Positions 1 to 33,834 of a stretch of DNA of 64,000 bases are shown piece after piece. The notes beneath the pieces are model-generated. The model did no database searches, was not told where the DNA came from, and saw nothing but the letters and a program-made list of their open reading frames with translations. This DNA is from Vigna angularis (taxonomy: Eukaryota; Streptophyta; Magnoliopsida; Fabales; Fabaceae): positions 4,646,501 to 4,710,500 of the forward strand of contig NC_068973.1 in NCBI RefSeq assembly GCF_016808095.1. Direction: 5' to 3'. The position numbers and the translations under genes were made by a program. Position 1 is the stretch's first letter. The number at the start of each line of letters is the position of its first letter.

Positions 1-1726
1 CCATCGGCAATGGCTCCGACAACGAACGTCGTCATGGACCGTGGCTCGCGGCTGCCGTTCGGGCGGAAGTTTGGTTGTACGTGGAGAAGCTCAGCTACCT
101 TTGGATTCAAATGAAGAGGAAATGAGACTTTGGTCTCGTTTAGCACAAATGGGAGGAGGTGGCAGCACCCCTTGGGCCAGATCCACATAAACAACAAAAT
201 AAAAAAATAATAACAAAAAAAAATATAAAATGAAATTGAAACAAAACAAAAAAAGTATTTTCCTCCTTCACGCACCCCGTCATTTTCATTTTCATACCTC
301 CATTTCATTTGGGCTTAAGCCCATTCTTGCTAACAAAAATAAAAAAAGAAAGAAGAATTGGGCTCACACATTTCAGGATACACCACCAGTTTCATCCTTT
401 CACTCCTGACAGATACAAAAGTTGGAAAGAGGGATTTTGGCCCAAACTAAGGGGGCTCCAATTTTACTCCGCACACAACACTGGTTTTCATCTATGCACT
501 CCTATTCTTGTTGGTTTGATTCTCTCGCTCTATTTTTAAGCCTTTATTTCTTTATTTTTATTACTTGTTTGATTGTTAGTTTTTTTTACTGTATGTAACC
601 CTTTGTATGATACCTCACTTGTATATTGTATCTTATATTTTGTCAGATTTGTTCATAAAAAAAAAATTAAAAAAGTAAAAATAAAAATAAAACAAAAGAC
701 AAAAAGAAAAATACAAAATTAAAAGATAAATTAAAAATTACAAAAATACGTTTCAAAGGTTTAAGCACATGTGTGATCGCACGCATCGTCCTTGTGCTAA
801 AAAACCTTTTCTCTTTCTTCAAAAAATGCCAAAAAAATATGTTTCAAAGGTTTAGGCACATGTGTGATCGTACGCATCGTCCTTGTGCTAAAAACCTTTT
901 CCTTTTTTCAAAATCCCAAAAAAATATGTTTTAAAGGTTTAGGCACACGTGTGATCGCATGCATCGTCCTTGTGCCAAAAACCTTTTCTCTTTCTTCAAA
1001 AAAATGTCAAAAATACGTTTCAAAGGTTTAGGCACATGTGTGATCGCACGCATCGTCCTTGTGCTAAAAACCTTTTCATTCTCCTAAATAAAAAATACAA
1101 AAAAATATAAAATCTTCAAAAACTAAAAAACATCTATTTTTCAAACTACAAACAATATCGCCTTGCAGAACTACGTGATCCTTGATTCTCCATCAAAAGT
1201 GGAGATACGTAGGAGCAAGGCCAGTCCTTGTCAGGCTCATTCTCCCAAAAATCCAAATTATCCATAACAAGTTCTCAACAAATTTTCCAAACAAATTCTC
1301 AAACAATTTTCAAACAAATTTCTCAAGCAGTTTTCAAAATGAACTACGGAACCCTGATTTCTCATTCTGAATGAGAATACGTAGGAGCAAGGTCAATCCT
1401 TGTCGGGCCCAAAAAAGCTAAAAAATATTGTTTGTTTCTTTAGAGTTTTATTTTAAGGGAATGTTAAACACTTTGAAAAACCACATCCACATTCGCGCAT
1501 TTAGTTAAAGGTACTGCCTTAGGGCAGGCGTTGTAGGGTGCTAATACCTTCCCTACACGTAACCGACTCCCGAACCAAGAATCTGGTTCAATTTGACCAT
1601 GCCTTATCATTTTATGGTTTTTTCGTAGTTTTCCAGAATAAACTATGGTGGCGACTCCAAAATCTCTTTTCGAAATTTTTATTCTTTTTATTCGATCGTC
1701 GTCCCGTCGCGATTCCAGTTGCGACA
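1..1726 (+). mobile_element. Left LTR of Ogre/Tat-like retrotransposon, 5' end cut by the window
   Basis: Base 1 onward matches 15333-17056 almost base for base. I count roughly a dozen substitutions plus a few 1-2 bp indels in 1.7 kb, so about 99% identity. The copy ends in ...TTGCGACA at 1726, followed by a 2-base spacer and a primer-binding site, which fixes the LTR 3' end. Judging from the full copy at 13485-17056, about 1.85 kb of this LTR lies upstream of the window. It contains a four-fold internal repeat (about 749-1070) and a twice-used motif beginning TACGTAGGAGCAAGG (near 1205 and 1380). Short ORFs here are not conserved genes. High identity to the other copy implies recent activity of the family. 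Confidence 0.9.
749..1070 (+). repeat. Four tandem copies of an 83-90 bp unit inside the left LTR
   Basis: Units start near 749, 839, 926 and 1014. Each carries the core GTTTCAAAGGTTTAGGCACA, then TGTGTGATCGCACGCATCGT and CCTTGTGCTAAAAACC, followed by a T/A-rich spacer. The core contains the palindrome CACATGTG (one unit has CACACGTGTG). The same four units occur in the other LTR copy (about 16080-16410), so the amplification predates the split of the two copies. Function is unknown; possible roles in LTR promoter or RNA structure are inference only. Confidence 0.85.
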
Positions 1727-1728
1727 GA

Positions 1729-1746
1729 TGGCGACTCCGCTGGGGA
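1729..1746 (+). promoter_or_regulatory. Primer-binding site complementary to tRNA-Arg
   Basis: The sequence TGGCGACTCCGCTGGGGA lies 2 bases after the LTR end. It begins with TGG, the complement of a tRNA CCA tail. As I recall the family, this is the tRNA-Arg-type primer site of Ogre/Tat Ty3/gypsy elements. It shows that the LTR at 1-1726 is a 5' LTR with its internal region running rightwards, and that the unit could prime reverse transcription. Confidence 0.85.
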
Positions 1747-2952
1747 CCATGAGAGTCTGGCCATTTAATTAGATGTGCGAATTCAATGTGGTTTTTCTTT
1801 GTGTTTTTCTTCCCTTTCTTTTTCTTTATCTTTGTTTGATTTTTGTCATAATTGTATGTGTGTTTGTTTTGTTTATATTGAACCCTAGGGTAGAAAACAT
1901 GTTATATCTGCCTGGGATTTTTCTGGTTGTTTTGCAGGTGAGGGTTTGGGGTGTATAATTGCATTCTCCCTTCACACACACACAATATGCATATCATGAG
2001 TGGGGCCCTATACCCGGGTCTGAGCGCAACTTAGAAATAGAGGGGTTGTGTAGCGGTGTCATTTGGGACATACTTCCTGTTTGGCTATCGTGAGAACCCC
2101 AGCCAGAGTCTGTTCTCTTCATTTGTGTCTCCACATCTAGTTGATTACTCTGACTGTTGTGGAGAAACAGTGAAAAGAGCCATAGCTCTGGTGGCCTGAT
2201 TTAAGCATTAGGAAGCTATCCTTGTGAGTGCATATATTTGGCCTTAGAACTTCAGTCATCCAACCTTTGATAAGGCACAAAAGGGAGAAATGTGTATTCT
2301 TATAACCCTCATGTTCGCTTAATAAAAATCACGCACCTTGTACATATCATCATATCTCTTTATCTTTTTCTTTCTTTCTTTTGCTTTTTCCTTTTTCTTC
2401 GCTCATTGTTTTTCTTCATAGTCTTGTCACATTTTGTGGATCCTAGTCAAAAATTATAAAGTTGTGATTAAGGCCCTTAAGCTAAAAATGGAAATTAACA
2501 TGGAATTTGAGTCAAGGGGTATAAGAATTTGGTGAGTTTGTCAGAGGGGAAGAATTTGGGAAAATATTAAATGCAAGTCTTGAGGCCAAAGCTCTATACA
2601 ACTAAATCGGGCAATATACCCATGTCCCGTCCTGGCTGAAGTTTATGGGACCCTTAATCGTTGTTACGAACTTAAAGAGGGAAAGATGTTATGTTGTCTA
2701 CCAGTGGTGTATTTGTGGTTCATTTCCCGTGAGACTGGAGACGCCTTAAATTCCCTGTACCCCATGGAGGAATTATTGTAGTATGTAATCGATTACAAGG
2801 ACATTGTAAACGATTACCCGAGAGAAAATTGGATTTTGTACAAAAAAGTCCATCACAGGTACTCAGTCAGGTGAACATGGGTCACCATTGGAAAAAGAAG
2901 TGACTTTTAGGCACTTTTGCGCTTGTCTTAGGCTGTTCCTTGTGAACCACAT
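1747..2952 (+). mobile_element. 5' untranslated leader of the Ogre/Tat-like element
   Basis: No ORF here is supportable; the short ORFs are T-rich and lack recognisable domains. The stretch is typical of a long Tat-lineage leader. It includes two GTAAtCGATTAC-like palindromes at 2785-2796 and 2806-2817, related to those at 17642-17735. Assignment rests on position directly after the primer-binding site. Confidence 0.55.
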
Positions 2953-3138
2953 GTGAAAAGAGTAAATGAATGGGCGCAACTCTGTGCAAGTTTAAATGAA
3001 GAACAAGTTAAATGGTGTGTCCCTTGGGAGCATAGATTGCAGATTACATGTCATTGCGGGAGGTATCCTAATGTACCCCTCATGGGTATTAGGTGTTGTA
3101 TTAATTGCAATCCTGTGTTAGCGCAAAAAATAATTTGA
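2953..3138 (+). pseudogene. Decayed ORF1/gag-region relic of the retroelement (DUF7745-like)
   Basis: A 61-codon open stretch without an ATG start. It contains LNEEQVKWCVPW, then CHCGRYPNVPLMG and INCNPVLA. That pattern (W..PW, CG.FPNVPL.GT, INYNP.LA) is one I associate with an uncharacterised protein encoded near the 5' end of legume Ogre-type elements. It is closed by a stop, and the surrounding sequence (3140-3740) looks like the same protein broken by stops and frameshifts. It is therefore a relic. Family naming is from memory and should be tested by profile search. Confidence 0.4.
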
Positions 3139-4379
3139 GTATCCTGAGAGGATCGCTAACACCTGCATCTCTCGCCACATTGCAGATCATATGAGGAATG
3201 AATCTTCGCTGAAATGTTCCATCAAGTTAAAGACAATTGGGGGCAATGTTGTTCGTTTCGAAGAAAAGCCCAAGATCATGGACTGTTAATGAAAGTTTCC
3301 CTTAGCCAATGAATCACAGAAAGGGTTAAGACAATCAAGTTGTAATTAATTTCCCTTACCCAAATTGCGAAAAGAAATTTCAAAATGATGAGCAGTGGAT
3401 AGAAGCAGCAGTGACAAAATTAGAAGGAATGTTGCCATTCAGCTAAAAGGGGACATAAAGATTGAATGAGTCAGATGAAGGAATATGTCGTTGAAGAAGG
3501 ACAAGTCACTCACAATTAGCTTTCTTCATCAATGAAGTCATTGAAAATGTTCCTAAGCTATTAGCTGGTGCTGGGTCTGTAATGTCAATCATCAACCCGC
3601 CTAAGGGGATTGAAACATTCCTCAATTGTTGCGAGAAACTGATCAGACCAATGAAGAATGTGATGACTAAAGCCTGCGATGGTTGACCAAGAATTCCTAT
3701 GTCTCGCATTTTGGGAACTTCTGAATGATGAATCACCTTATTGACTCAGTTTCGTGTTAATTTCCAAATTATACCGGGGCAATTATTTTCACAGCTTTAT
3801 AATTTCTGACTCGAGATTTTAAACTGCGTTGTGTGTTCTTTTCATTTTAAAAAAAAAAAAAAACTAAAATACAGCTAAATATCTAAGATACCCTAAAGGA
3901 CTCGAACCAGTTCACAAATCTTGGAGAACCAAAAAGAAGGAATGAAAGTCGATATCCGACAACTGAAGGAACAAATGAGCTTAATCTTAGAGGCCCTAAA
4001 CGCCTTACAATGACTTGGAGATTTGTACACACCACAACTACAATAGAGTTTGAGTGGCACAAATTTTCCCTCCTTATTGGTCTTTCCTCGTATTACACTC
4101 CGCCGTGAGAGGCACACTCGGGTCATGAAGCCCACAAAAGACCAAGGAGAACACATTTGAGAGAGGAAACAAGCTGGGGACAACCACTTACATGGTCCTT
4201 TGAGGAAATTATTAAGCCAAGTATTGTGAGCACGATGAGGACAGAGCTGCCCGAGTTGAAATCTTCTCACCAAAGTCAATGTTGAGGTTGTCAGGCACAA
4301 ATTTGAGGTGCTAGAAAAATTGTGAAAGCCATAAAAGGTGGATGAAGCGCCAAGTTTGAAAGTGTTGCATGTACGCTCG
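3139..4379 (+). mobile_element. Degenerate internal region of the retroelement, no intact gene
   Basis: Plus-strand fragments read as broken protein sequence, but no frame stays open. A 178-residue minus-strand frame (3893-4429) starts inside the repeat array and has no recognisable domain, so I do not call it. No aspartic protease, reverse transcriptase, RNase H or integrase motif was found here or anywhere else in 1727-13484. Confidence 0.5.
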
Positions 4380-4592
4380 TCGCCAAGTGAGCGGACGCTC
4401 GTCACATAGCGAGCGCACGCTCGTTCCATAGTGACGCTCGTTCAGCGCGCAGTGGATGCTCGTTCAGAAAGTGGACACTCGTCCACGCTCGTCCAGAACG
4501 CTCGAAACGCTCGTCCAGCAGAGGACGTTCATCCAGAAAGTGGACGCTCGTCCAAAATTGGGATGCTCGTCCAGAAAATTGGACGCTCGTGA
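4380..4592 (+). repeat. Irregular array of GGACGCTCGTCC-like imperfect palindromes
   Basis: About a dozen variants of (G)GACGCTCGTCCA are packed into about 210 bp, separated by short runs such as GAAAGT or AAATT. The core GGACG-CT-CGTCC has self-complementary 5-base arms, so each unit can form a small hairpin. The local base composition is clearly more GC-rich than the flanks. It lies in the middle of the element's internal region. Confidence 0.75.
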
Positions 4593-5689
4593 CTCAATTA
4601 TTCAACCCTTCTCTTTAAAAGCTGATTCAGAGGAGTTGCAGAAGCAGATTTGGACGGAGAGGAAACTTATGCGTGATGCTACCAAGTCTCCTACGAAAAG
4701 GCCTTGTCTACTGGTTTCGTGAAGCCTGTTAAACTTCCATGATCCAGGGCTTATGGTTTCATTGAAAGTGTTGGGTGTTCCAGCGCAAAGCCAAACTTTA
4801 ATTGATTCAAGATGCTTAAGGTTCGATGAATTAGGCTTTAGGAAAACATAAGTCAGTATACAAGAGAATTTGATGTTGTGAAGTGTCTCACTACCGAGGA
4901 GGTATGCGCATCGATATAGCACCTTCATCCATGACTTTCAATGTGAACATTCACTATAAGGTTCTCAAAGTAGTGCTGGAAATCGAGTCCTTAAAGGGTA
5001 TTGCGAAAAAAAAAATTAAAAAAAAAATTGAAAAACTTTTGTCTTCTTGCAGATTGTTAAACTCTTGTTTTTCGAAAATAGAAAAAAACAAAAAATAATC
5101 AAAAACAATGTTGCAGTGTCGGATTTTCCCGAATTTGTTGTTTTCTCGCGATGCATGTTTTCCATTCATATAGTTATTTCAGCGCGTATTGCAGCGTGTT
5201 TTCCATTAGAGGCTTGTCTTGAGCCGATTTCTTTCGTTGTTTCATACACATATTTCATTGAAATTTTGCTTATCACTTTCACTTCAGATCTCATGTTTTT
5301 ATTCGAATTCAATTTTCCCTTATTTTCTTGTAAATAAATTATTTTAGCCTTTTTTTTATATACATAATTGTTGGAAGATCTTGTTTTGACTGAAATAAAA
5401 GAAAAAGCATAAAAATCCATTTCATTTCATCATCGGAAAAGGAAAATACAGTAAAGTCGGATACACTCATACGATCTTGGCATCATGATAAATAAAATAA
5501 AAATGCATAAAAAAAAAAACAGAAATAACAAAAAAGAAGTGCAAGGTCACAAATTCAAATAAAAAACAAAAAAAAAGCAAATAAAGCAGATAACAAAGGA
5601 AAATAAACAATGTTCGTGGTTCGATCACTGGTGATCGTTAATATTACAGACCATGAAAAAAAAAACCATGAAAAAAAGAAAACAACAAT
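4593..5689 (+). mobile_element. Internal region of the retroelement between the palindrome array and the antisense gene
   Basis: Short frames (4456-4722 and 4883-5337) are not recognisable. The second half is rich in A and T runs. On the minus strand this interval would hold the 3' UTR and terminator region of the WOX-like gene that ends at 5690. I see no strong single polyadenylation signal. Confidence 0.35.
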
Positions 5690-6263
5690 TCAGCGAAAAA
5701 ATTCCCGAGCTGGTTGCGGTGGTCTGAGGGAGAGCTCCGTCGAGGGAGCTCTGGTTCGGAAGGTGAGATGCATGGGTGGAGCGATTTGTCGTCCGTCCCT
5801 GTCGTCGTCAATGATGATCGGAACGGGGAACAAGTTCAGCAGCCTCGGCGCCCTCATGATCACCCAGTCATATTCTTCCAAAAAAAACAAACAAAACAAA
5901 ACAAAAACAAACGAAATTTTTGTCAATAATAAGATGAGGAGAAAATTTGAAAAAAAAAAAAAAAAGATGGAGGTGATCAGGATGCTTACCATACATGTAT
6001 AGCGGCAGTTGCGAGAACTGAGTGCCAGTGGGGTCTATCTCCGCTTGCCAGCGCCTGACCCGATTGCCGTGGTTGTTAAACCAGCAGTGCACATTGTATT
6101 CAGTGGCATCTGCGAAAGCCCTTAGTCGAGATGCGATCTCGACGACTTGGGCTCTGCTGGGATGTGTGACCCCGTAATTGTAGATATGGGTCATCATTTT
6201 GACCTGATCGTCAGTAGGTCTCCACCGCTGACTGGTGTACCTATCCATCTCCATCTCGCTCAT
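5690..6263 (-). CDS. WOX-family homeodomain transcription factor carried antisense in the retroelement
   Basis: The ATG is at 6263-6261. Coding exon 1 is 6263-5990 (91 codons plus 1 base) and ends at a GTAAGC donor (5989). The intron ends in a T-run then GGAAG (5875). Exon 2 is 5874-5690, ending in TGA. The phases match and give 152 residues. Residues about 12-71 form a WUSCHEL-type homeodomain: RW.PT..Q at 13-20, P35, RLR.F at 46-50, and recognition helix NVHCWFNNHGNRVRR (57-71) with W61, F62, N64 and R68 at the conserved W48, F49, N51 and R55 positions. LLNLFP at 103-108 resembles the WUS-box (T-L-x-L-F-P), and LSL at 139-141 resembles an EAR repressor motif. Known WOX proteins of this clade are nuclear repressors controlling stem-cell identity. 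Odd points: it is short, and the recognition helix differs at usually fixed positions (NN for QN, GN for KA). Expression is not shown. Confidence 0.8.
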
Positions 6264-6281
6264 CTTTCCTCTATAAGTTTT

Positions 6282-7039
6282 CTGAAAAAAAAATAATAAT
6301 AATATAAGAATAAAAAGAACAAAAACATAACAAAAGCATAAAACAAAGGAAAGTTTTTTCAGTGTTTTCTTTATTCGTTTTTGTTTCCTTTTAAGTTAAT
6401 TTTTGTCCGGTTGGTTCTTGTTATTTCAGTGTCTGGTCTCGGATCTGTTTCACGGTCCTTGTAAGAGGGTCCTAAACGGATCTATGTCCTTTTGTCCTTG
6501 TCCTTTTGTCCTTGTCCATTTGGTCCATGTCCGGTTTATACAAATTAAAATTCTTTTTTAAGTTTTCTGATTTTATGGGGTACGTGGCGTTGTTCTACCC
6601 GATTGTCTCTGCCATACCTTCAATCGAAGGGAGATTAACGTCTGGTTTCCAGCCTATATACCCCTTAGGTTTAAGACAGTTGTGTTTTTAAGTGTTTTAT
6701 GTTTTGAAAATTAAAAAAAAAGAGGAAGAAAGAAGACTCAGAAAGAAAAGCAAAGAAGGGCAAGACGGAAATAAAAGCAAGCGAAGCAGAAAGCTAAAGA
6801 GTAAAGGCAAGAACAGAAAGCGCAAAGGGAAAAAGAGCAGAAAGCATAAAGAAAGGAAATATAAAAGGGAACGGGAAGAAGAAAAAAAAAAGCAGAGAAA
6901 GCATCAAAGGGCAGAAAAACAGTAAAAAAAAATGAAGGGCGAAAAGGAAAGAAAAGCAGAGAGGGAAGAGCGGAAGGAAGAGCAAGAAAAGGAAAAACTA
7001 AAAGGAAAGAAAGAAGATCGAAGAGCTCAGAAGACTTAC
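6282..7039 (-). other. Predicted 5' UTR intron of the antisense WOX-like gene
   Basis: On the minus strand a perfect CAG/GTAAGT donor lies at 7040/7039. A T-rich tract followed by CAG ends at 6282, 18 bases before the ATG at 6263. The 758-bp interval is strongly pyrimidine-rich on the minus strand (purine-rich on the plus strand at 6700-7000). That strand bias also produces the long Lys/Arg/Glu-rich and Phe/Leu-rich frames seen on either strand there, which are not genes. The splice assignment is inference from consensus only. Confidence 0.6.
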
Positions 7040-7230
7040 CTGGAAGTGGAACACACACTGAAGCTCCTCGGAAGGCACGGACGCTGTGGAAGGCGGGGAC
7101 GGAGGAGCCTCGCAGAAGTCCAGACACTCAAGGAAGAGAGAGAAGAGAGAAGAGGGAGAAAGAGAAGGATAGAGAGAGAGCGAGATCGGGAAAATGTCGC
7201 TCAGACGCCGAAGGGGTACCCATTTTATAG
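7040..7230 (-). promoter_or_regulatory. Antisense TATA box and non-coding first exon of the WOX-like gene
   Basis: On the minus strand CTATAAAATG occupies 7230-7221, a close match to the plant TATA consensus. A start site is expected near 7195. The following minus-strand sequence (about 7190-7125) is a long CT-rich pyrimidine patch of the kind found around plant core promoters and 5' UTRs. The exon then ends in CAG at 7040 before a GTAAGT donor. There is no ATG in the exon frame that I would call coding. The promoter faces opposite to the LTR transcription direction. Confidence 0.6.
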
Positions 7231-7239
7231 CCGAGCAAA

Positions 7240-8490
7240 TCCACTGTGGCTACAGTTCCGGTCGCTGCAACCGTCTGGTGTCGGTCTGATTTCTTTCTGA
7301 GTTTTTTTAAAAAAAAATAAAAAAAATTTGAAAAATCTGAAAACGGGTAGGGTTTTGTTGGGTCGATCCGGCCCAATTCAATACTTCTTGGATGACCCGA
7401 TTTCACCAAAAAATAATAAAACAAAAAAATCAAAAATATGATAAATGGAAAATTTTCAAAAATATATAAGTGGAGTGATGTAAAATTTGAAGTGTTCAAA
7501 ATTGTTTTTCAATTGCATGATAAAGGACATTTTTCAGGTTCATTGGGCCTCATTACCATGTTAGCTTTCTTTGAACCCAATTCTTTCTGAAATATAAATT
7601 TGAGTGAAGAATTATTTTGGCATGTTTGTAATTTCACATCACACCATTTTGTCTGTTTTTATTCCTTCTTCTACATTTTGAATAAATCCGAAAATAAAAA
7701 TATTGAAAAAGGAACAGTGCTCGAGTCCATTTGGCCCAATGGCCTTCGTGGTTTTCTCTCGAGTCCACTTCTTTTGAAAATATGTCAAAAAATTTTTGTT
7801 TTCACATTTTTGCTGTTGAATGATTTTTTGTACATTTGTTCAAATTGTCTTGTGTGATTTTCGTTGATTTTGTTGTTAAAGAAGAAAAATCTGAGAATGA
7901 AAGATGAACAGTTTTTGAGCCCATTAGGCCCTTTTGGCATATGTGGTTTCTCTTGAAGCAGTCCATCTGAATTTCTGAAAAATAAAAAAAATACATGTTT
8001 ATTTTGTGTTCTCAATTCATAATTTCCCTTTTCATTTGTGTGAATAAATATTTGTGCAAAAAAAAAAGGGAATTCAGACTCTTGTCTCAAGTTTTTTTTT
8101 TTCATTATTGTAAAAGGAATAGTGTTAGGCCCATTGAGTCTTGTCGTGGTTGTAACAAGAATAATGTTTGGCCCATTGAGTCTAGTGGTGTTGCAAAATT
8201 TTCTTTAGTTCAATCTTGTGAAATCTTCTCATAACAAAAAAATGATTTTCTTTTAGCTTGTTCCATAAACTTTGAAAAATGCAAAAAAAAAAATGTTTTC
8301 TTTGTCATCTTCTTGTGACAAGTTCACACGGCTCAGGTCATCTGATCCATTGGGTCAATGTGCCTGGTAAGTCCACCTTCCTTCTGTGATTTTTCTCCTC
8401 GGGTTCGATCCGATCTGGATTTTCCCGTGTCAAAAAAAAACTTTTTTCAAACATTTTCCTAAACAAAATTTTCTCATATCAATCTTTGCA
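7240..8490 (+). repeat. Diverged long-period repeats in the hypervariable 3' part of the element
   Basis: A phrase of the type GCCCATTgGGCCyt, followed by CGTGGTTtCTCTcGAGTCCA..TT and an A/T-rich spacer, recurs near 7540, 7725, 7920, 8130 and 8170. The copies are imperfect. No gene is supportable. Tat-lineage elements are known for a variable region of tandem repeats upstream of the 3' LTR (established for the lineage), which fits. Confidence 0.45.
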
Positions 8491-8494
8491 TTGC

Positions 8495-9212
8495 TCGCCA
8501 AGCCTAGTTTCTGCACTGGTTCCCTAGCCCTTGTTTCCATTTTAGCTCTCAAATCCTATTTCCCATACTGGTCTACAAAGCTCAGTTTCCATACTGACCC
8601 GCAAGGCCCAATTTCCACATTGAAAAAAAAAAAAAAAAAATCTCAGATACCACAAAAAAAAAAATCTCAATTTCCACATTAGCTCAGAATGCACATTTCC
8701 CATATTGGTCTGCAAAGCTCAGTTTTCATACTGACCCGCAAGGCCTAGATTCTACAAAAAAAAAAAAAAAAAAAAAAAATCTCAATTTCCACAACAACTC
8801 ATAAAGCCCATTTCCCATACTGGCTTGCAAAGCCCAGCTTCCATGCTGACCCGCAAGGCCCAGATTCCACATTGGCCAAAAAAAAAAATCCCATTTCCCC
8901 AATGGCTCAGAAAGCCTATTTTCCACATTGGCCCAAAAAGTTCATTTTTCATAATGGCTTGCAAAGCTCAGGTTCCATACCGACCCGCAAGGCCTAGATT
9001 CCACAATGGCCGAAAAATTTCAATTTCCACATTGGCCTAGAATGCCCATTTCCCATACTGGCTTCCAAAGCTCAGTTTCCATACTGACCCACAAGGCCGA
9101 GTTTCCATTGGCCAAGAAATCCCAATTTCCCCAATGGCTCACAAAGCCTATTTGCCATATCGGCCCGCAAGGTCCAGTTTCCAGGCTGATCTGCAAAGCC
9201 CAATTTTCAAAC
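8495..9212 (+). repeat. Minisatellite with a base unit of about 27-32 bp
   Basis: Units of the form CCATACTGrCyyGCAAAGCyC followed by AGTTT or AGATT alternate over about 700 bp. Paired units give a higher-order pattern of roughly 120-180 bp punctuated by long A runs (8622-8640, 8755-8779, 8878-8888). The reading frames that cross it, such as the IPHWPKK-type repeats, come from the repeat and are not genes. Confidence 0.8.
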
Positions 9213-10240
9213 CAAAAAAAAAAAAAGAATCTGTTTTTCAACTAGCATCATCATTTTTATTTCATATACTTTTCTTCGTGCATAAAACAAAAAAAAATAC
9301 GCAAAAGTTTGAGTCATTTGTTTTCGATACAAATCATCCATTTTATGAGATTTCAAAAAAAAATATAATGGATGTCATAATCTCCTGGAGTCAAATGATC
9401 AAATCGCATATTCTTAAGAGATATTTGTGTGTGCATCGCTTGAAAACATCATTCTTTAGCCCTCACTATACCAAGAGATTGGCCCAATCATATTCTTGAG
9501 CCCATAATAAACACCAAGTTTTACACTGGGGCAGATTTTCCGTTACCTCCATTGCGTTCATTTGGGAGATTCCTGAATCCGTTAGGACAAAACAAAAACA
9601 AGGAAAAAATGAATAAATAAAAAATGAATGACTCTTGTTGAGATCATTTAGTCTTGTCTCCTAATTAATCTTTTGAAAATAAAACAACCAAAATTTGAAA
9701 TGACGTGTGGCCATCTTTCTTCATCCAAAACAAAAATATATCCTTTGATACCCAAATTTGAGCCAATAAGAAATTTCTTTTCAAAATTTTACCCAAACAG
9801 AGGTTACCATCATGGTAGAAATCAACTCAAATTGCAGGAAGAACACACTTAGTGATCAAATGAAGTGAATTCCTCAAAAGCGAAGCAAAAATGCAAAGAA
9901 TCACAAAGTGATAGCAAGCAAAGAATGAAATTCGAGAAGGGGCAAAGTAGTCAAAACAGTTTTGACGAATAACTGATACAAAGTATAGATGATAACTCTT
10001 GTTTTTCAAAAAAATATACCCACAAAAATTTATTTGAGCCTTTATATCCTTTCTTTCAACACCCTTTAGCCCAAGCCACATTACAAGCCCAATAAAAGTC
10101 CACACAGATTGAATAATGGTTGCTTAAATTTTCATAAAGTTTAATTTTGAGACAAGACAAAAATGACCAACAATGCAGTTGTAAAAAAAAAATGAAAAAA
10201 AAATGAATGATGATGAAAAATAAATGTCCTCGGATGAAGG
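9213..10240 (+). mobile_element. Retroelement 3' region without recognised genes
   Basis: Low-complexity A/T-rich sequence with isolated fragments. Phrases such as TGGGGCAGATTTTCCG recall the GGGGCA phrases that recur downstream. No coding frame has a recognisable domain on either strand. Confidence 0.35.
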
Positions 10241-10359
10241 GAACTCCCTATTGATCAAAATTATACAAAGGAAAATCAAACCGTTTGGGGCAATCTTTTC
10301 GAGCCAATCCTTTCCATATCCATCACAAATTCCTGAACACATTCAAGTCCCATCCAAAC

Positions 10360-10900
10360 TCTTTCCCCGAGTCCCAAACTTGGGGCAACTTTGTAAGCTC
10401 TTCATAACCTTTTCGCCTGTTCTTTAAAACCGGGGCAACTATGTGAGTTTCATATGTTTCGGCCCGGCCCATTCAGAATATTGGACGACTTTGTCAATCT
10501 CACATTTGTTTCATCTGTATATTCAAAGTTCGTACCAAGACCGGGGCATCCCTTGTTGGGCCTCTCAGATTTGTCCGTACTGAAATTCATAAATACACCC
10601 TCAAAACAGGGGCAGACACTTTGGGGTTTTGTATGATCCTGAGTCCATCTTATCATTCGTAAACCCAAAATGGGGGGCAACCTTTTGTTGAACCTCGCTT
10701 AATTGACTCATACCCAAAACCAAGGCGTGACTTTCATATGCTTCTGCCCATTCAGAGTATTGAGCAATTTTGTTAAATCTCAAATTTTTTTCATCTGAAT
10801 ATTCAAAGCTCATACAAAGACTGGGCATCCCTTGTTGGGCCTTGCATGATCTTGGTTCGCCCCGAACTTCAGAAACTTAAAACCACCAAAATTGGGGCAA
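10360..10900 (+). repeat. Two copies of a unit of about 285 bp with CGGGGCA phrases
   Basis: The block from CATATGTTTCGGCCCGGCCC (about 10456) through CTTGTTGGGCCT (about 10562) recurs in diverged form from CATATGCTTCTGCCCATTC (about 10735) through CTTGTTGGGCCT (about 10843). Each copy holds ATTCAGA.TATTG.., TTTCATCTG.ATATTCAAAG and GGGGCA/TGGGCA. It is part of the same hypervariable domain. Confidence 0.65.
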
Positions 10901-11340
10901 TTTGCAAATCCCACATGATATTCTCACTCCTTGATTCCTGACTTGTTCCCTCACAATTCATAGATACATTTGTCCATACCAATACTTTTACCATGTTCCA
11001 GAGCAGCTTCTGGGTATCTACTAGCTCACATTGGCATTTGTATCCGTTTCAAGGAGTAGGAGGCTCGAGTGGCCCACCCGGTACTCTCCAAATCCTTCCA
11101 ATCATCCTCCACATATTTTAACCAACCCCTGATATCAAGCATGTACACACTAGTATCTCGTCAAGAAATGCATAGCATACAAACTTCATTTTGCACAGTT
11201 GACTTTAGAATTTGGACATCCATTGAAAGGAAATTGGAAGTCTAGATCGTCATAAATTGGATGATTTCAAAGGAAACAAATTGACTCTCAAAAAAAAAAT
11301 GTCATAGGTTCATAATCTTCCAATATATCATGTACATATT
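10901..11340 (+). mobile_element. Unique-looking stretch of the retroelement 3' region
   Basis: No coding frame, RNA gene or clear repeat recognised. It lies between the GGGGCA repeats and the 11.35-kb tandem array. Confidence 0.3.
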
Positions 11341-11344
11341 TTCG

Positions 11345-11740
11345 TCAACCTTGAATTTTCCTCCATGTATATTACATCAATTTTTCTTCCTTCAAAAAGA
11401 CAAAAAAAAAATGCATCAAAGTTTTCCCTTCCATGTATGTTACATCAATTTTTCTTCCTTCAAAAAGACAAAAAAATCAACATTCATCAAAGTTTTCCTC
11501 TCTAATTTCAAAATTTCATCAAATTTTCTTTTTCAAAAAGACAAAAAAAATTCATCAAAGTTTTCCTCTCTAATTTCAAAATTTCATCAAATTTTTCTTC
11601 TTTCAAAAAGACAAAAAAATGCATCAAAGTTTTCCCCTCCATGTACATTACATCAAATTTTCTTCCTTCAAAAAGACAAAAAATCAACATGTATCAAACT
11701 TTTCTTCTCCAAATTTCAAAATTTACATCAACCAAGTTTC
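11345..11740 (+). repeat. Tandem array with TTCAAAAAGACAAAAAA units, about 60-75 bp
   Basis: About six units share CATCAA(A)TTTTTCTTCCTTC followed by AAAAAGACAAAAAA and a variable linker with TGCATCAAAGTTTTCC. The 257-codon frame spanning 11330-12103 results from this array and the next one and is not a protein gene. Confidence 0.75.
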
Positions 11741-11913
11741 TCTTGCATGTCAAGATTTCAATTTCTTGTACAAAAATGCAGCACCTTGTTTTTAATTTCA
11801 ACCTTATGCAAAATTCTCAAAAAAAAAAATCAAAAATCAAAATCAAAAAGGTTCTCAAAATTTCAACAAATTCAAAATTTCATCTTTTCAAAACAGTCAA
11901 CCAATTTTTTTGC

Positions 11914-12295
11914 CATTGGTATCTCGGCCCTCTGTAAGACAATGGTCGAGCCCAATTTTTGCTTTTTGTCATTGGTATCTTGGCCCTCTGTAAGACAATG
12001 GTCGAGCCCAATTTTGCTTTTTGTCATTGGTATCTCGGCCCTCTGTAAGACAATGGTCGAGCCCAATTTTGCTTTTTGCCATTGGTATCTTGGCCCTCTG
12101 TAAGACAATGGTCAAGCCCAATTTTACTTTCTGTCATTGGTATCTCGGCCCTCTGTAAGACAATGGTCGAGCCCAATTTTTACTTTCTGCCATTGGTATC
12201 TCGGCCCTCTGTAAGACAATGGTCGAGCCCAATTTTGCTTTTTGTCATTGGTATCTCGGCCCTCTGTAAGACAATGGTCGAGCCCATTTTTTTTA
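11914..12295 (+). repeat. Seven copies of a 55-56 bp tandem repeat
   Basis: The core GGCCCTCTGTAAGACAATGG starts at 11926, 11982, 12037, 12092, 12147, 12203 and 12258, giving a very regular 55/56-bp period. Copies differ by only a few bases (CTCGG/CTTGG, GTCGAG/GTCAAG), so the expansion is young compared with the neighbouring arrays. Confidence 0.9.
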
Positions 12296-12700
12296 ACTTT
12301 TTCACACGACCCTCTGCATGGCAATGGTCAGATACAGACTTTTATTTTTTTCACACGACCCTCTGCATGGCAATGGTCAAATCAAATTTTACTGTTTCAA
12401 ATGACCCTCTGCATGGCAATGGTCAGTACATATTTTTAAATTTTTCTCAAACGACCCTCTGCATGGCAATGGTCAAATCAAATTTTAATTTTTTCAAATG
12501 ACTCTCTGCATGGCAATGGTCAGGTACATATTTTTAATTTTTTTCAAATGACCCTCTGCATGGCATTGGTCCGTACATTTTTTTAATTTTCTCAAATGAC
12601 CCTCTGCGTGGCAATGGTCAAGTCCAAATTTTAATTTTTCAAACGATCCTCTGCATGGCAATGGTCGAACCTAATCAAATTCAAATTTCTCATTCATTTA
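12296..12700 (+). repeat. Eight copies of a 46-50 bp tandem repeat related to the previous array
   Basis: The core GACCCTCTGCATGGCAATGG starts near 12308, 12357, 12403, 12453, 12500, 12550, 12598 and 12645. The shared skeleton CCCTCTG..(A/G)..CAATGGTC links it to the 55-bp family upstream. The two arrays therefore probably arose from one ancestral monomer that diverged and was amplified twice. Confidence 0.88.
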
Positions 12701-12839
12701 ATCTTGTTCATCTTATTAAAAAAAAGAAAAACAAACAAACAAAAAATTTTAATTAAAACAAAAAAAAATAATAATAAAAAAAAATGAAAAAAATTCCCTT
12801 TTTGTTCCTGATTCTTTTTCATTGAAAATTCTCTGTTTT

Positions 12840-13260
12840 TTCCTTGTGTATTTTGAAATCCGAACGAAATTAATATTTCTATCTTTACTTATCTTTTACT
12901 CTGATAATATGAAAACTTTGTTTATCATATGATCTAGTAAAATCTAAGTAAAGAGGGGCAACACTCAATTTCGTCCGGATTGATTAATAAATTTACTTTC
13001 AAAAAAAAATTAAAAAAATATATTTCCTCGTTCACTGCATCTGTAGCATTAGTGGACCCTCCACGAGGTTGTTACACCTCAATCTCTCATTTACCGTGCA
13101 CTTTATTGAAATCTTATTGTTGTTTCTTTTCGTCTATTTCATTTTGAGACCCGAACAAAATTAGTGTTTCTATCTTTACTTATCTTTTACTATGATAATA
13201 TGTAAATAGTAAATTTTCATATCATCCAGTAAAATCTAAGTAAAGAGGGGCACTAAAATA
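12840..13260 (+). repeat. Duplicated segment of about 115 bp, each copy ending in a polypurine tract
   Basis: A block beginning with a CCGAACGAAATT or CCCGAACAAAATT phrase, running through TATCTTTACTTATCTTTTAC and ending in CTAAGTAAAGAGGGGCA, occurs at about 12855-12960 and again at about 13147-13250, a period of about 290 bp. The purine run AAGTAAAGAGGGG looks like the polypurine tract that primes plus-strand synthesis just upstream of a 3' LTR. After the first copy comes CAACACTCAATTTCGTCCGG, which resembles the LTR start at 13485 (TGTTAACACCCAATTTTGTCC). Confidence 0.65.
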
Positions 13261-13479
13261 ATTTCAACTTGTGTTTCTATATTCACAATTTTTATAGTTC
13301 ACATTCATTTTTTTTATAAGCATTTTCGTAAAATTTGAAAAAGTTGCTCACTTCTAACCATATCTGGATTCTGAACATGTTCAACCAATTTTGACATCAA
13401 TGCAAAATAAACACATTGGGTACAAGCAATTTGTTTTCAAACAAATAATTTCAAGTAGAAGTCTTAGCATGTAGGTGTA

Positions 13480-16400
13480 GCCATTGTTAACACCCAATTT
13501 TGTCCGGGTAATTTTTAATAAAAAATATATACTTCTTTCCTTTTTATGATGTTTACTTCATTTTATTTCACTTGGTTTTATCGATTATTATGTTTGAATT
13601 GATTTTATTTTGATGAGATTTTATTTTATATGATTTAATTTTATTTTGTTAGATTTTATATGATTTTACTTTATTTGGTTTTATGTGATTTTTTTTTAAT
13701 TATATTTTATGTTATGTTGTTTAATTGGGTCTAATTTTATTTAATTTTATTTGTATTTTTATTGATCTTAGATTTTATTTTTTACGTTTTTTCTTTATTT
13801 ATGGAATGATTTTTTTGATATTTATTTTGTGGATAGCATGTAATTTTATTTGATTTGGTTTAATGCGGTTTATTTTTATTTGATTTGTTTCAAATTTACT
13901 TTATTTGATTTTGTCTTCCTTATTTGGATTTATTTCATGTGATTTTATTGTATGTGATTTCATGTGATCTTGTTTCTGTTATTTGTTTTTAGTTTTAGTT
14001 AATTTTGTTTGTTTTAAAAGTTACTTTATTTTATGATTTTTATTTCTATTTTAGTTTTATTTATCTTAATTTGTTTTATTTATGGAATTAGTTGATTTTG
14101 ATTAATATGATTTAATTTGGTAGTGATTTTATTTGAATTAAGATTCCAATGTGTCTTATGTTGATAATCTTCCTATTGCACTTTTAGACATTGCTCCTTT
14201 CCAATTATTCTCCAACGTGCCAGCCATTCATTGTTCTCTTCAGTTAATCACTTTCTTTTCCTAGCCGCCCACTAAGTTTTCCAACCATACTTTCATTTCT
14301 CCTCTTCCACCAATTAACTTAATCCTTCACAAAAAGCCTGAATGAGATCAACAGGAAGCAATCGAAGCTGACAGATACCATCTAATTTTATATATACCAT
14401 TTGAGGTATCACATGGAGAACAGTTTACAAATTTCTACCTTTACCAATCCTCCAATCACAGCTACCGACACTCTCACCTCTTACTGTGTTAAAGCCTACA
14501 TAATTCACAAGAGAGGGGGAGGAAGAAAAACACAGCTACTAGGGAGACCCATCATTCTACACTCTGACCAATCTTCATCCTAACCCATAAACATCTCTCG
14601 GCCATCCTTACAGCCGACACTTATGAGCCAATGAAACCCGCCGGCAATTTGCGTTCTTTTGCCAATTTAAGCAGAGGGAAATCTATCAATCGGGGCATAC
14701 CCACGGCTACTTGAGGCCATCATCATCTGACTCTCATCATTTTCCAACCTCTATTCCCCTCCATCAACCTAACATCGTCACCTTCATTTTACCTCACGGC
14801 CATTTCCCCAATCTTCATCATCTTAATATCATCTTCATCCATATACCACCTCCAGCATCATCTCTTCATCCTTACCCCTTATCCCACAACCATCGGGAAC
14901 ACCCATCATCATTAACCCTCACTTGTAGTACCAAAATCCCCAAAGTCGTTTCCCTGCAAGTAAAGAGAATTAATCCAAACACCCAAATCAATACACAAAT
15001 CAATACACAGAGCAGAACTAATCCAGTGTTTACCCCTCCCTGGGTTACCAATTTCGAAACAAAGAAGAGAAGGAGGGAGGAAGCAATGATGCTGGCCGGA
15101 TCGGGGCGGCGTGATGTGGTGGCTGGTCCAGAAAGGCAGTGACTCGGTGGTCATTTGCGGCGTGGTAGCTGGATCGGAGAAGCAGTGGCGCGCCAGACTG
15201 AATCGAAGAAGCGACGACCCCGGCTTGGTGGTTGCAGCAGCTGACGCAGCGGATGGCCGGCATCGTTGGTGGCTGCGAGAGCGTGTCCAGATCGCGGTAC
15301 AGCGAGCAGCGGAAGAGGAGAGCTTTCGCCTCCATCGGCAATGGCTCCGACAACGAACGTCGTCATGGACCGTGGCTCGCGGCTGCCGTTCGGGCGGAAG
15401 TTTGGTTGTACGTGGAGGAGCTCAGCTACCTTTGGATTCAAATGAAGAGGAAATGAGACTTTGGTCTCGTTTAGCACAAATGGGAGGAGGTGGCAGCACC
15501 CCTTGGGCCAGATCCACATAAACAACAAAATAAAAAAATAATAACAAAAAAAAATATAAAATGAAATTGAAACAAAACAAAAAAAGTATTTTCCTCCTTC
15601 ACGCACCCCGTCATTTTCATTTTCATACCTCCATTTCATTTGGGCTTAAGCCCATTCTTGCTAACAAAAATAAAAAAAGAAAGAAGAATTGGGCTCACAC
15701 ATTTCAGGATACACCACCAGTTTCATCCTTTCACTCCTGACAGATACAAAAGTTGGAAAGAGGGATTTTGGCCCAAACTAAGGGGGCTCCAATTTTACTC
15801 CGCACGCAACACTGGTTTTCATCTATGCACTCCTATTCTTGTTGGTTTGATTCTCTCGCTCTATTTTTAAGCCTTTATTTCTTTATTTTTATTACTTGTT
15901 TGATTGTTAGTTTTTTTTACTGTATGTAACCCTTTGTATGATACCTCACTTGTATATTGTATCTTATATTTTGTCAGATTTGTTCATAAAAAAAAAAATT
16001 AAAAAAGTAAAAATAAAAATAAAACAAAAGACAAAAAGAAAAATACAAAATTAAAAGATAAATTAAAAATTACAAAAATACGTTTCAAAGGTTTAAGCAC
16101 ATGTGTGATCGCACGCATCGTCCTTGTGCTAAAAAACCTTTTCTCTTTCTTCAAAAAATGCCAAAAAAATATGTTTCAAAGGTTTAGGCACATGTGTGAT
16201 CGTACGCATCGTCCTTGTGCTAAAAACCTTTTCCTTTTTTCAAAATCCCAAAAAAATATGTTTTAAAGGTTTAGGCACACGTGTGATCGCACGCATCGTC
16301 CTTGTGCCAAAAACCTTTTCTCTTTCTTCAAAAAAATGTCAAAAATACGTTTCAAAGGTTTAGGCACATGTGTGATCGCACGCATCGTCCTTGTGCTAAA

Positions 16401-17061
16401 AACCTTTTCATTATCCTAAATAAAAAATACAAAAAAATATAAAATCTTCAAAAACTAAAAAACATCTATTTTTCAAACTACAAACAATATCGCCTTGCAG
16501 AACTACGTGATCCTTGATTCTCCATCAAAAGTGGAGATACATAGGAGCAAGGCCAGTCCTTGTCAGGCTCATTCTCCCAAAAATCCAAATTATCCATAAC
16601 AAGTTCTCAACAAATTTTCCAAACAAATTCTCAAACAATTTTCAAACAAATTTCTCAAGCAGTTTTCAAAATGAACTACGGAACCCTGATTTCTCATTCT
16701 GAATGAGAATACGTAGGAGCAAGGTCAATCCTTGTCGGGCCCAAAAAAGCTAAAAAATATTGTTTGTTTCTTTAGAGTTTTATTTTAAGGGAATGTTAAA
16801 CACTTTGAAAAACCACATCCACATTCGCGCATTTAGTTAAAGGTACTGCCTTAGGGCAGGCGTTGTAGGGTGCTAATACCTTCCCCACACGTAACCGACT
16901 CCCGAACCAAGAATCTGGTTCAATTTGACCATGCCTTATCATTTTATGGTTTTTCCGTAGTTTTCCAGAATAAACTATGGTGGCGACTCCAAAATCTCTT
17001 TTCAAAATTTCTTCTTTTTATTGGATCGTCGTCCCGTCGCGATTCCGGTTGCGACAGCCAT
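13480..17061 (+). repeat. GCCAT direct repeats flanking the second LTR
   Basis: GCCAT lies at 13480-13484 directly before the LTR's first TG and again at 17057-17061 directly after its terminal CA. Five-base duplications are what Ty3/gypsy integrase makes at insertion. Finding them on both sides of one LTR is the signature of a solo LTR or independent insertion rather than the 3' LTR of the element on the left. See the finding for the competing reading. Confidence 0.65.
13485..17056 (+). mobile_element. Full-length 3.57-kb LTR of the Ogre/Tat-like family (solo LTR or 3' LTR)
   Basis: It begins TGTTAACACCCAATTTTGTC and ends ...CGGTTGCGACA, so it has TG/CA termini. 15333-17056 matches 1-1726. 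The first third is very T-rich (13500-14120), and 14200-15060 is C-rich with short non-conserved frames. 15060-15500 is the GC-rich part whose start is repeated at window base 1. The four-fold 83-90 bp repeat lies at about 16080-16410. There is no polypurine tract directly upstream, which would be required if this were the 3' LTR of the left element. Frames of 102-162 residues around 15045-15639 overlap each other on both strands and show no domains. Confidence 0.85.
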
Positions 17062-17641
17062 AATACTACTTCATTACTAACATTATAGATATAACTTCTT
17101 CTTGTATTCTTGCCACCACCACTGCACAATTCATTTCATTATAACAAAGTAATACGAGAAGATGTTGTTCCTTCACCTCCACCACATTTCGTACCTTTCG
17201 ACTACCAAATCTCCACCACCTTCACGCTTCTTCCTCCACCACGATAAACACCTGAATTCCCAGTGAACACCTGCATTAGAAACCCACTGTCAGACCACGA
17301 TAGATCACCCAGTACCATCCACTCCTCATATAATCAGTACTCCCTTGCTTGTCCACCATTGTTTCAACAGAACTGTATCTTCCCTCTCGGTCTTCTTATC
17401 TCTGACATGGCCTCCGCCACCCTCACCTCCTCCATAACTCCCTACAATGCCAATGAATAACAACCATTACAACGTAATGAATATTAAGCACTAAAAACCA
17501 CTGACCACTACCATACTTGTCCACTCCGGCTAATCATCTCGTCCTCGGTGGCGTCCAAGAACAACTGTCGTGCACCCCATAACCTGCTCCAGACACCGGC
17601 CAAGCACCCAATACAATTTCACTTATTTTTCAGTCAACAGT

Positions 17642-22790: not shown

Positions 22791-23182
22791 ATTAATATGT
22801 TTTATTGTTGATAATTTTTTAAGATAAAATTATTATTATTTTTAATTGGTATTATTTTACAAAATAAAATTAAAAAATATTTTTTAGATTTAATTTTATT
22901 AAGTTACTAAGTAATGAAATATCATTAAAGAAAAAAAGTAATGTAGAAAAAATAATTAATATAATAAAAATATCAAATGAAAAAACAATTATCAATATGG
23001 ATAAGAATGTAACTTTCTTAAAATCCTCTTTATTATATTATAATAAATAATAAATAATAAATTTTAGTTTAGTTTATAGTTAATAAATAATAGATAATAG
23101 ATAATTGATTAACAAAACAACTCCATGTACATGTGAATTAGTTTAAAAATAAAATAAATGAATAAAAAGATAAATTAAATTA

Positions 23183-23585
23183 GGTTTAATTGCTTCCTTT
23201 GTCCCCAGTTTGGTTGAATTGTGTCAAATTCATCCTCATTTTTAAAAAAGTTTCATTGTCGTCCTCACGTGGTGTAAAAGTGTCAATTGAATCCAAACAT
23301 AGAAAAAATTTGTGTCAAAGTAGTCATTTTTCCTATATCTCTATGTCTTCCTTTCATACAATCAAGTACAGATATTCATTTTACCTTATCCAATTTAAGA
23401 CTTTTCATAGCTCCAGAGAAGACACAGAGATATAGGAAAAATGACTACTTTGACACAAATTTTTTCTATGTTTGGATTCAATTGACACTTTTATACCACG
23501 TGAGGACGACAATGAAACTTTTTTAAAAATGAGGATGAATTTGACACAATTCAACCAAACTGGGGACAAAGGAAGCAATTAAACC
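23183..23585. mobile_element. Foldback MITE (Tourist/PIF-Harbinger-like) with TTA target duplication
   Basis: The left arm starts GGTTTAATTGCTTCC and the right arm ends GGAAGCAATTAAACC. The two arms, each close to 200 bp, are nearly perfect reverse complements around a short centre near 23360-23400. TTA flanks both ends (23180-23182 and 23586-23588), as in PIF/Harbinger-derived MITEs. It has no coding capacity; frames inside are read-through of the inverted repeat. It lies about 440 bp upstream of the JAZ start codon, and each arm carries a CACGTG G-box (23266-23271 and 23497-23502). Confidence 0.88.
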
Positions 23586-24025
23586 TTAAATATAAATGCA
23601 CGATCACGCTTAAGGCCAACTTATTATAAATAGTATGTATTTATTTATAATATAAGATTTTAAAAATCAAATTAAATTAACCAAAATGAAAACATGGTTG
23701 AACTGAAAAGTCAGAGTAGGAATGTTGGGTGGGCCAGTGGTCATGTGACCGCAACTTGTGAGAGACGCAAACCAGATAAGCAACAGATAAAGTAACCAAA
23801 TAAAGAAAATGAAAAACAAAAGCACAAAAAACACATGTTTCATTAAAAAGTGGGCAACATCGATGGTTTGTCACGCCTCATGTTGGAAGGTACTTTGCTT
23901 TTCTCGAAGCGTTGAAAATTCCCAGACACGTTTCCCCAAATATCCATCTTTTTCTTATCTCTTCCTTCCTCCTTCATAGTTTCCCCTTCCCACCTTCTGA
24001 TCTCTCTCTAGTTTTTCTCCCAACA

Positions 24026-32415: not shown

Positions 32416-32424
32416 AAATTTCAT

Positions 32425-33782: not shown

Positions 33783-33834
33783 AAATTTCATTTTTTTACA
33801 GGCCTAATGTTTTTTAGCATCCACATTTAGTGAT

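What the first reader, a model, noticed from the sequence alone, without database searches (positions are those of the whole stretch)
5690..7230. A WUSCHEL-related homeobox gene carried antisense inside a non-autonomous Ogre/Tat-like LTR retrotransposon
Seen: on the minus strand, two exons that join in frame encode a WOX-type homeodomain, a WUS-box-like motif and an EAR-like end. The gene sits between an Ogre/Tat LTR with tRNA-Arg primer site and polypurine tracts, with no gag-pol in the 11-kb interior. Known: Tat-lineage elements sometimes carry extra ORFs, including antisense ones, and WOX proteins are master regulators of meristems. Inference: the element captured, and may spread, a stem-cell regulator that could alter host development or favour transmission through meristem and germline cells. 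I do not know whether a WOX cargo has been described.
Basis: partly seen in the sequence, partly recalled or inferred. Interest (0 to 1): 0.93.

Follow-up and report, generated by a model that had tools for sequence, protein, structure and literature searches.

The report
Stem-cell regulator gene inside jumping DNA
In adzuki bean a family of jumping genes carries, in hundreds of copies, a gene related to the plant stem-cell regulator WUSCHEL, and the gene's protein has been kept intact by natural selection, so the jumping genes probably use it.

Summary
On the minus strand two exons (6263-5990, 5874-5690) join into an open 152-residue WOX-type homeodomain protein (Pfam Homeodomain 2e-6; PDB WUSCHEL 3.4e-10), preceded by a 5'UTR intron and a TATA box at 7230. 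The gene lies antisense in an LTR element without detected gag-pol, part of an LTR-int-LTR-int-LTR array. A 41-base intron block of this gene occurs 332 times; 10 of 10 loci fetched through it hold the gene, 9 uninterrupted. Pooled pN/pS is 0.16-0.22 in frame and 1.08-2.32 in wrong frames or on the other strand, so the protein is under purifying selection. One carrier has long open gag-protease and RT-RNaseH-RNaseH-integrase frames, so this is an accessory gene of a probably autonomous Ogre/Tat-type lineage; the window copy is a gag-pol-less derivative. Related WOX repeat families lie outside the host WUS clade and mostly keep WUS's base-reading residues but change neighbouring DNA contacts. 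LTR-borne WOX amplification in two other Vigna species was already reported in a 2023 meeting report. Expression and targets are unknown.

The parts
1..1727 (+). 3' part of LTR2 (the LTR begins at about -2080, outside the window)
   Evidence: 99.2% direct repeat of 15332-17057; extent from upstream sequence
1728..1747 (+). primer-binding-site-like sequence; tRNA-Arg type recalled, not tested
   Evidence: same motif in an independent copy
2584..3135 (+). broken remnant of an ORF1 with DUF7745, in two pieces separated by stops
   Evidence: PF24924 3.3e-10 (2584-2778) and 1.9e-17 (2932-3135)
5690..5874 (-). WOX exon 3, coding (WUS-box-like LLNLFPVP, acidic stretch, EAR-like TELSLRPP)
   Evidence: pooled pN/pS 0.22 in 29 copies
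5875..5989 (-). intron 2, GT..AG, kept in 31 of 31 aligned copies
5990..6281 (-). WOX exon 2: start codon at 6263, homeodomain
6282..7039 (-). intron 1 in the 5'UTR; donor GTAAGT in 31 of 31 copies, acceptor AG in 25 of 31
6571..6678 (-). highly conserved intronic block, also in 4 of 4 family-B loci
7040..7200 (-). 5'UTR exon 1 (transcription start inferred, not mapped)
   Evidence: sequence; donor GTAAGT conserved
7223..7230 (-). TATA box CTATAAAA of the antisense gene
   Evidence: CTATAA in 30 of 31 copies
7486..7506 (-). 21-base block, each base shared by at least 30 of 31 copies, with a TGAA/TTCA inverted pair; candidate regulatory site
   Evidence: such sites are not enriched in the element
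11907..12675 (+). tandem repeats near the 3' end of the interior
13242..13250 (+). polypurine tract AAAGAGGGG next to LTR3 (a second one at 12951)
13251..17057 (+). LTR3; homology to other family LTRs starts at about 13485 (TGTTAACACC)

Best explanation
This is a working accessory gene of an Ogre/Tat-type LTR retrotransposon lineage in Vigna. It encodes a small WOX-type homeodomain regulator on the strand opposite to gag-pol. Shown: the gene lies antisense and keeps a TATA box and two introns in many dispersed copies; its protein is under purifying selection across copies; one carrier has long open gag-pol frames, while the window copy has lost them. Inferred: introns survive because the sense RNA cannot splice them; a spliced antisense mRNA is made from the element's own promoter; the protein enters the nucleus, binds DNA with its WOX homeodomain and recruits co-repressors through its WUS-box; its main targets are the element's own promoters (LTR and/or antisense promoter), so that it tunes when and in which cells the element is expressed, comparable in role to antisense regulators of retroviruses.
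For: Homeodomain by Pfam, PDB and fold search. 28 of 31 aligned copies end at the same 152-codon stop, 31 of 31 keep ATG and GT-AG of intron 2. Pooled dN/dS 0.158 over the CDS of 29 copies; exon 3, mostly outside the search match, 0.220 against 1.08-2.32 in wrong frames and on the other strand; exon 2 in 11 loci found through noncoding DNA 0.188 against 1.62; block-ascertained loci 0.160 (exon 2) and 0.196 (exon 3), 11 rows with the window, wrong frame 2.19, 9 of 10 uninterrupted. LTR pair around an independent copy 99.6% identical. A carrier with gag, protease-like, G-patch, RT, RNase H, RVT_3 and integrase domains between DUF7745 and the antisense WOX. TATA in 30 of 31 and donor in 31 of 31. 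In the rows counted, N90 and R94 of WUS are kept in 33 of 33, neighbouring contacts changed.
Against: No RNA, protein or binding data. 10 of 10 tested DUF7745 elements, none of them a known carrier, had no homeodomain at the expected place, and 2 of them show the end of pol there, so the gene is not needed by the whole lineage. TGAA-type sites are not enriched in interior or LTR, so self-binding is not shown. A gag-pol-less copy keeps the gene, which a purely trans-acting product would not require. 6 of 31 copies lack the AG acceptor of intron 1. Family D shows weaker constraint (0.458, 7 loci).
Confidence: 0.68

Rival explanations
1. Host-directed effector: the protein mimics or antagonises host WOX proteins in shoot meristems or the germline lineage, enlarging or altering the cell population in which new insertions are inherited.
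For: WOX fold, WUS-box core and most base-reading residues of WUS are kept; retention in a gag-pol-less copy fits a benefit to whichever element expresses it. A domain of the LONELY GUY family (YgdH) is reported in Citrus LTR elements (PMC9289625, section read).
Against: Y86 is replaced in 32 of 33 repeat-borne homeodomains counted, K92 and A93 in 33 of 33, and Q89 in 7 of 7 of family A, while all four are invariant in 13 host WUS-clade rows; nothing shows expression in meristems.
Confidence: 0.2
2. The conserved thing is the RNA or DNA (for example a packaging or regulatory sequence), not the protein.
For: Noncoding blocks are highly conserved too: 7240-7763 and 6290-6700 differ less between copies than synonymous sites do, and the intron block is about 87% identical between families A and B.
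Against: In the exons substitutions follow the reading frame: pooled pN/pS 0.16-0.22 in frame, 1.08-2.32 in other frames or on the other strand.
Confidence: 0.03
3. Host-level selection: amplified WOX copies are kept because they help the plant, for instance in salt tolerance.
For: Large amplification was noted in two coastal Vigna species; its role in adaptation was called unknown (PMC10714607, passages read).
Against: Hundreds of similar copies also in this crop genome; constraint across copies inside transposons is what selection during retrotransposition would give; copies with stops exist.
Confidence: 0.05
4. Neutral passenger, or host genes with LTRs inserted beside them.
For: Some copies have stops: 9 of 150 listed matches, L038, L113.
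Against: Frame-specific constraint; LTR pairs around the gene at two independent places and a carrier with gag-pol frames.
Confidence: 0.02

Closest known systems
LTR-borne WOX genes of Vigna marina and V. riukiuensis (talk by Naito, in meeting report PMC10714607, passages read; the cited preprint is not held and was not read)
   Same: WOX genes amplified, mostly with identical LTRs at both ends, within the genus Vigna; more than 1000 copies in V. riukiuensis
   Different: The passages seen mention target-site duplications but not orientation, lineage, gene structure, selection or gag-pol carriers; here another species, and no duplication seen at the window array
Antisense ORFs (TRP28 and others) of Retand elements (PMC11963269, abstract and passages read)
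   Same: Antisense gene between pol and the 3' LTR of a Tat-clade element, predicted DNA-binding, defective derivatives, tandem repeats in the same region
   Different: Different domain (WOX homeodomain, with introns and clear host homologues), longer LTRs, DUF7745 ORF1; 'homeo', 'WUS', 'WOX' and 'Vigna' do not occur in that paper's main text
AlkB-type RNA demethylase in orchid Ty3/gypsy elements (PMC9289625, abstract, section 12 and passages read)
   Same: Host-type functional domain fixed in giant Gypsy elements
   Different: RNA-modifying enzyme rather than transcription regulator; 'homeo' and 'Vigna' do not occur in its main text
Host WUS/STENOFOLIA proteins
   Same: Homeodomain fold, WUS-box core, N90 and R94 of WUS
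   Different: Short protein, changed phosphate-contact residues, outside the host WUS clade in the tree

Membership tests
WOX (WUSCHEL-related homeobox) family | WOX-type homeodomain | tested here: met
WOX (WUSCHEL-related homeobox) family | WUS-box (TL-LFP type; consensus recalled) | tested here: met
   L106, F107, P108 invariant in 23 aligned proteins; the first T of the consensus is not kept
WOX (WUSCHEL-related homeobox) family | EAR motif LxLxL (recalled) | tested here: inconclusive
   TELSLRP only partly fits
WOX (WUSCHEL-related homeobox) family | Placement within the host WUS clade | tested here: not met
   Host WUS clade (14 rows) 98/97 without any repeat family; families A-D (35 rows) on one side of a branch, 61/93; 68 columns, with the program's warning about long branches
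Ogre/Tat LTR retrotransposon | Second RNase H between RH and integrase | tested here: met
   RVT_3 between RT_RNaseH and the integrase domains beside a WOX copy, L102; criterion from PMC6317226 (passages). Not testable in the window copy, where no pol was found
Ogre/Tat LTR retrotransposon | Place in a reverse transcriptase tree | not tested
   No named reference RT sequences were fetched
Ogre/Tat LTR retrotransposon | tRNA-Arg primer-binding site | not tested
   Motif seen at two copies; its tRNA is recalled
Ogre/Tat LTR retrotransposon | Extra ORF1 before gag (recalled for Ogre) | tested here: met
   DUF7745 frame of 694 codons upstream of gag at the L102 place; broken remnant in the window
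Non-autonomous LTR retrotransposon (window copy) | Paired LTRs, PBS and PPT without gag-pol | tested here: met
   not every frame of the interior was tested

The most novel reading that the evidence does not exclude
A WOX homeodomain gene has become a selfish regulator: captured by a Tat-type retrotransposon lineage, diversified into several families (A, B, C/D) outside the host WOX clades sampled, with an altered DNA-contact surface and its own conserved promoter-proximal block, and kept even by gag-pol-less elements because it controls in which cells, perhaps stem cells or germline precursors, the elements are expressed.
Probability: 0.4. Interest if true: 0.9.

Novelty: new variant of a known kind. 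Interest (0 to 1): 0.75.

Why it matters
Antisense accessory genes are common in Tat-clade elements but what they do is unknown. Here the encoded protein has a well-studied host relative with solved structures and known DNA sites, hundreds of copies in a small diploid crop genome, and frame-specific constraint, so the question of what such genes do becomes directly testable. It also warns that some Vigna records named WUSCHEL-related homeobox are transposon genes, which affects gene-family counts.

Tried and rejected
Rejected: dead passenger and selection on the nucleotide strand only (frame controls); host gene beside LTRs (LTR pairs and a gag-pol carrier). Rfam gave one chance-level match in 1-17100 (E 0.16, far under its gathering score). 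TGAA-type sites: three patterns tested in three stretches; not enriched in interior or LTR; one pattern reached 1 in 100 simulations in 7230-7763, but it was chosen after seeing the site. RNA fold of the intron block: plus strand z -2.0 (8 of 200 shuffles as good), minus strand z -0.7, not convincing. A first alignment with unoriented loci was wrong and was redone. The homeodomain tree cannot fix the origin of the gene (68 columns, 21 open forks). The three protein-database searches returned 58, 69 and 75 proteins; by the names shown they are V. angularis except V. radiata (P0072), V. umbellata (P0073), Rehmannia glutinosa (P0075, inside the host WUS clade) and two without a name (P0074, P0076). 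This does not show absence elsewhere. Ten paper searches ran.

Biases and dropped rows: searches used loci chosen by similarity to the window protein, which favours intact copies; (exon 2) and 126 used loci chosen through noncoding DNA to lessen it. L032 and L037 were left out, and two of 31 copies of the exon-3 test by length; L043 was left out of the exon-2 test. P0063 (a degenerate family-B protein that has lost R38 and R94), P0066 and P0075 were left out of the residue counts; P0051 has K for R38. The DUF7745 test: 19 places were picked at every sixth of a typed list; the known carrier C10:21449557 was left out of the request and the second one, C7:5176711, of the smaller request, so the 10 tested hold no known carrier.

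Full report
What was checked. The minus strand at 6263-5990 and 5874-5690 joins in frame into 152 codons ending in a stop. Pfam finds one family, Homeodomain, 2e-6 and 27.9 bits over a cut-off of 22.9; the only PDB sequences found are WUSCHEL and STENOFOLIA. An AlphaFold2 model of a 152-residue relative, P0001, shows three helices (18-29, 37-47, 55-76) with block pLDDT of 82-92 for residues 11-70 and low confidence elsewhere (mean 63.5); its best PDB matches are STENOFOLIA and WUS, one of 207 with E under 0.001. Upstream of the start codon are an intron with donor GTAAGT at 7039 and a TATA box at 7230.

The element. The repeat 1-1727 / 15332-17057 is the end of a longer LTR. Upstream sequence shows LTR-interior-LTR-interior-LTR with a period of 15,331 bases; Kimura distances are 0.0011 (LTR1-LTR2), 0.0032 (LTR2-LTR3) and 0.0043 (LTR1-LTR3), so the array is probably young. 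PBS-like and PPT motifs sit at the expected places; no target-site duplication was visible. Other LTRs of the family begin their homology at about 13485, so 13251-13484 is an extra piece between PPT and the usual LTR start. No gag or pol domain was found in 10 ORFs and 10 sense-strand pieces (not every frame tested); DUF7745 remains in pieces at 2584-2778 and 2932-3135. An independent copy at C2:25886010 has an LTR pair 99.6% identical over 3311 bases, with PBS and PPT about 12.3 kb apart and an interior that matches the window's in pieces; its domains were not searched.

Organism. Several contig lengths of the genome equal those shown for V. angularis records in the protein database, for example C1 65407200 for P0048 and C9 32215300 for P0067; the name is inferred from that.

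Copies. The protein search scored 150 of 1018 candidate places; of the 150 rows listed, 141 have no stop inside the match; these are the best-scoring ones. A DNA query from noncoding sequence 7400-7690 scored 40 of 232 candidates and gave 12 loci, 12 of 12 with an open exon 2, two of them the window and its tandem sister. The 41-base intron block occurs 332 times with up to 2 mismatches, control 0. Of 85 exact block places listed on C1-C3, 43 have a listed WOX exon downstream; of the other 42 I fetched 10, and 10 of 10 hold the whole gene, 9 with an uninterrupted frame and one (L113) with a late stop.

Selection. Over 31 genes (window and L009-L038), 31 of 31 keep the ATG and intron-2 splice sites; 28 stop after 152 codons, L037 after 156, L032 after 147 with a changed end, L038 after 81. 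Pooled dN/dS is 0.158 in 29 of 31. Exon 3, which lies mostly outside the search matches, gives pooled pN/pS 0.220, against 2.32 and 1.16 in the wrong frames and 1.08 on the opposite strand (14 non-overlapping nearest pairs: 0.286, opposite strand 0.941); exon 2 in 11 loci found through noncoding DNA gives 0.188 against 1.62. Block-ascertained loci with the window give 0.160 (exon 2) and 0.196 (exon 3) against 2.19. Over the CDS of 29 copies pN/pS is 0.076 among the most similar pairs and 0.206 among the least similar, so no rise towards 1 in recent divergence was seen. TATA: CTATAA in 30 of 31; donor GTAAGT in 31 of 31; acceptor AG of intron 1 in 25 of 31.

Autonomous carriers. DUF7745 was listed at 118 places, 118 of 618 candidates being scored. 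Within 25 kb, 7 of 150 family-A places and 5 of 46 repeat-type places that I picked have it in the expected opposite-strand order, 4 pairs lie in another order, and 0 of 25 family-B places have it. On C1-C3, 8 of 42 DUF7745 places have an exact intron block in the right order, two of them over 20 kb away, and one pair lies in another order. Between WOX and DUF7745 at C10:21.44 Mb lie two sense frames open over 1211 and 1152 codons, with gag, aspartyl protease (below cut-off) and G-patch, and with RT, RNase H, RVT_3, H2C2 and integrase core; the LTRs of that element and the other carriers were not examined. A second RNase H between RH and integrase marks Ogre and Retand (PMC6317226, passages read). 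Against universality: of 10 further DUF7745 places, none a known carrier (10 of 19 picked, 118 in all), 0 have a homeodomain in a 2.6-kb window at the expected place, and 2 show the end of pol there; a gene at another distance would have been missed.

Relatives and origin. Family B (36-48% identical to the window protein, about 25 places, same exon split) and repeat families C and D (alike over the whole 601-base loci fetched) were found. Whether B, C and D sit between LTRs was not examined; one D and one C place have DUF7745 in the right order, at 10.3 and 22 kb. In a tree of 60 homeodomains and 68 columns A-D are on one side of a branch with support 61/93, not conclusive; the host WUS clade is 98/97 without them. 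pN/pS of the homeodomain is 0.105 in 10 C and 0.458 in 7 D loci. R38, N90 and R94 read bases in WUS (PMC7203112, passages read). In 33 repeat-borne rows counted N90 and R94 are kept in 33, Y86 is replaced in 32, K92 and A93 in 33, and Q89 in 7 of 7 of family A and no other; R38 is R in nearly all sequences printed.

Interpretation. Shown: a protein-coding accessory gene, antisense, with introns and TATA, dispersed with LTR elements and under purifying selection. Inferred: expression, DNA targets, repression. Antisense position explains why introns survive, since the sense RNA cannot splice them. Keeping the gene in a gag-pol-less element suggests a benefit to the carrier itself. Self-regulation is my first choice by analogy to antisense regulators of retroviruses (discussed in PMC11963269, passages read); host-directed action is the main rival.

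Novelty. PMC10714607 (passages read) reports WOX genes amplified between identical LTRs in V. marina and V. riukiuensis; PMC10357499 notes WOX expansion in V. reflexo-pilosa (passages read). No description of antisense structure, selection or gag-pol carriers turned up in my paper searches, which cover open-licence papers only and of which I opened six; the cited preprint and Steinbauerova et al. are not held and were not read.

Noticed in passing
window 6571-6678: Intron block about 87% identical between WOX families A and B (4 of 4 B loci), whose proteins are about half or less identical; holds a TATATA-like sequence and a 6-codon ATG..TAG frame; may be a second core promoter and leader (inference).
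   Followed up: partly
window 13251-13484: Extra 234-base piece between the polypurine tract and the usual LTR start in all three LTRs of the array; its 13300-13484 part has four lone matches elsewhere.
   Followed up: partly
G000 C4:4998533-5032135: A second likely LTR-int-LTR-int-LTR array of the same LTR family, about 16.2 kb period.
   Followed up: no
P0073 (Vigna umbellata): Gene model joining a family-B WOX exon to an unrelated C-terminus (arabinogalactan-like by recall); either annotation error or exonised transposon gene.
   Followed up: no
P0074, P0076: Two unnamed divergent WOX-like proteins with a shared N-terminus on a very long branch.
   Followed up: no
P0047, P0062, P0067, P0070, P0071: Public V. 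angularis records named WUSCHEL-related homeobox 1, 2, 4 or 8-like resemble families A and B.
   Followed up: partly
window 32424-33783 and 23182-23586: Long self-complementary stretches (73% and 89% identity), possible foldback elements.
   Followed up: no
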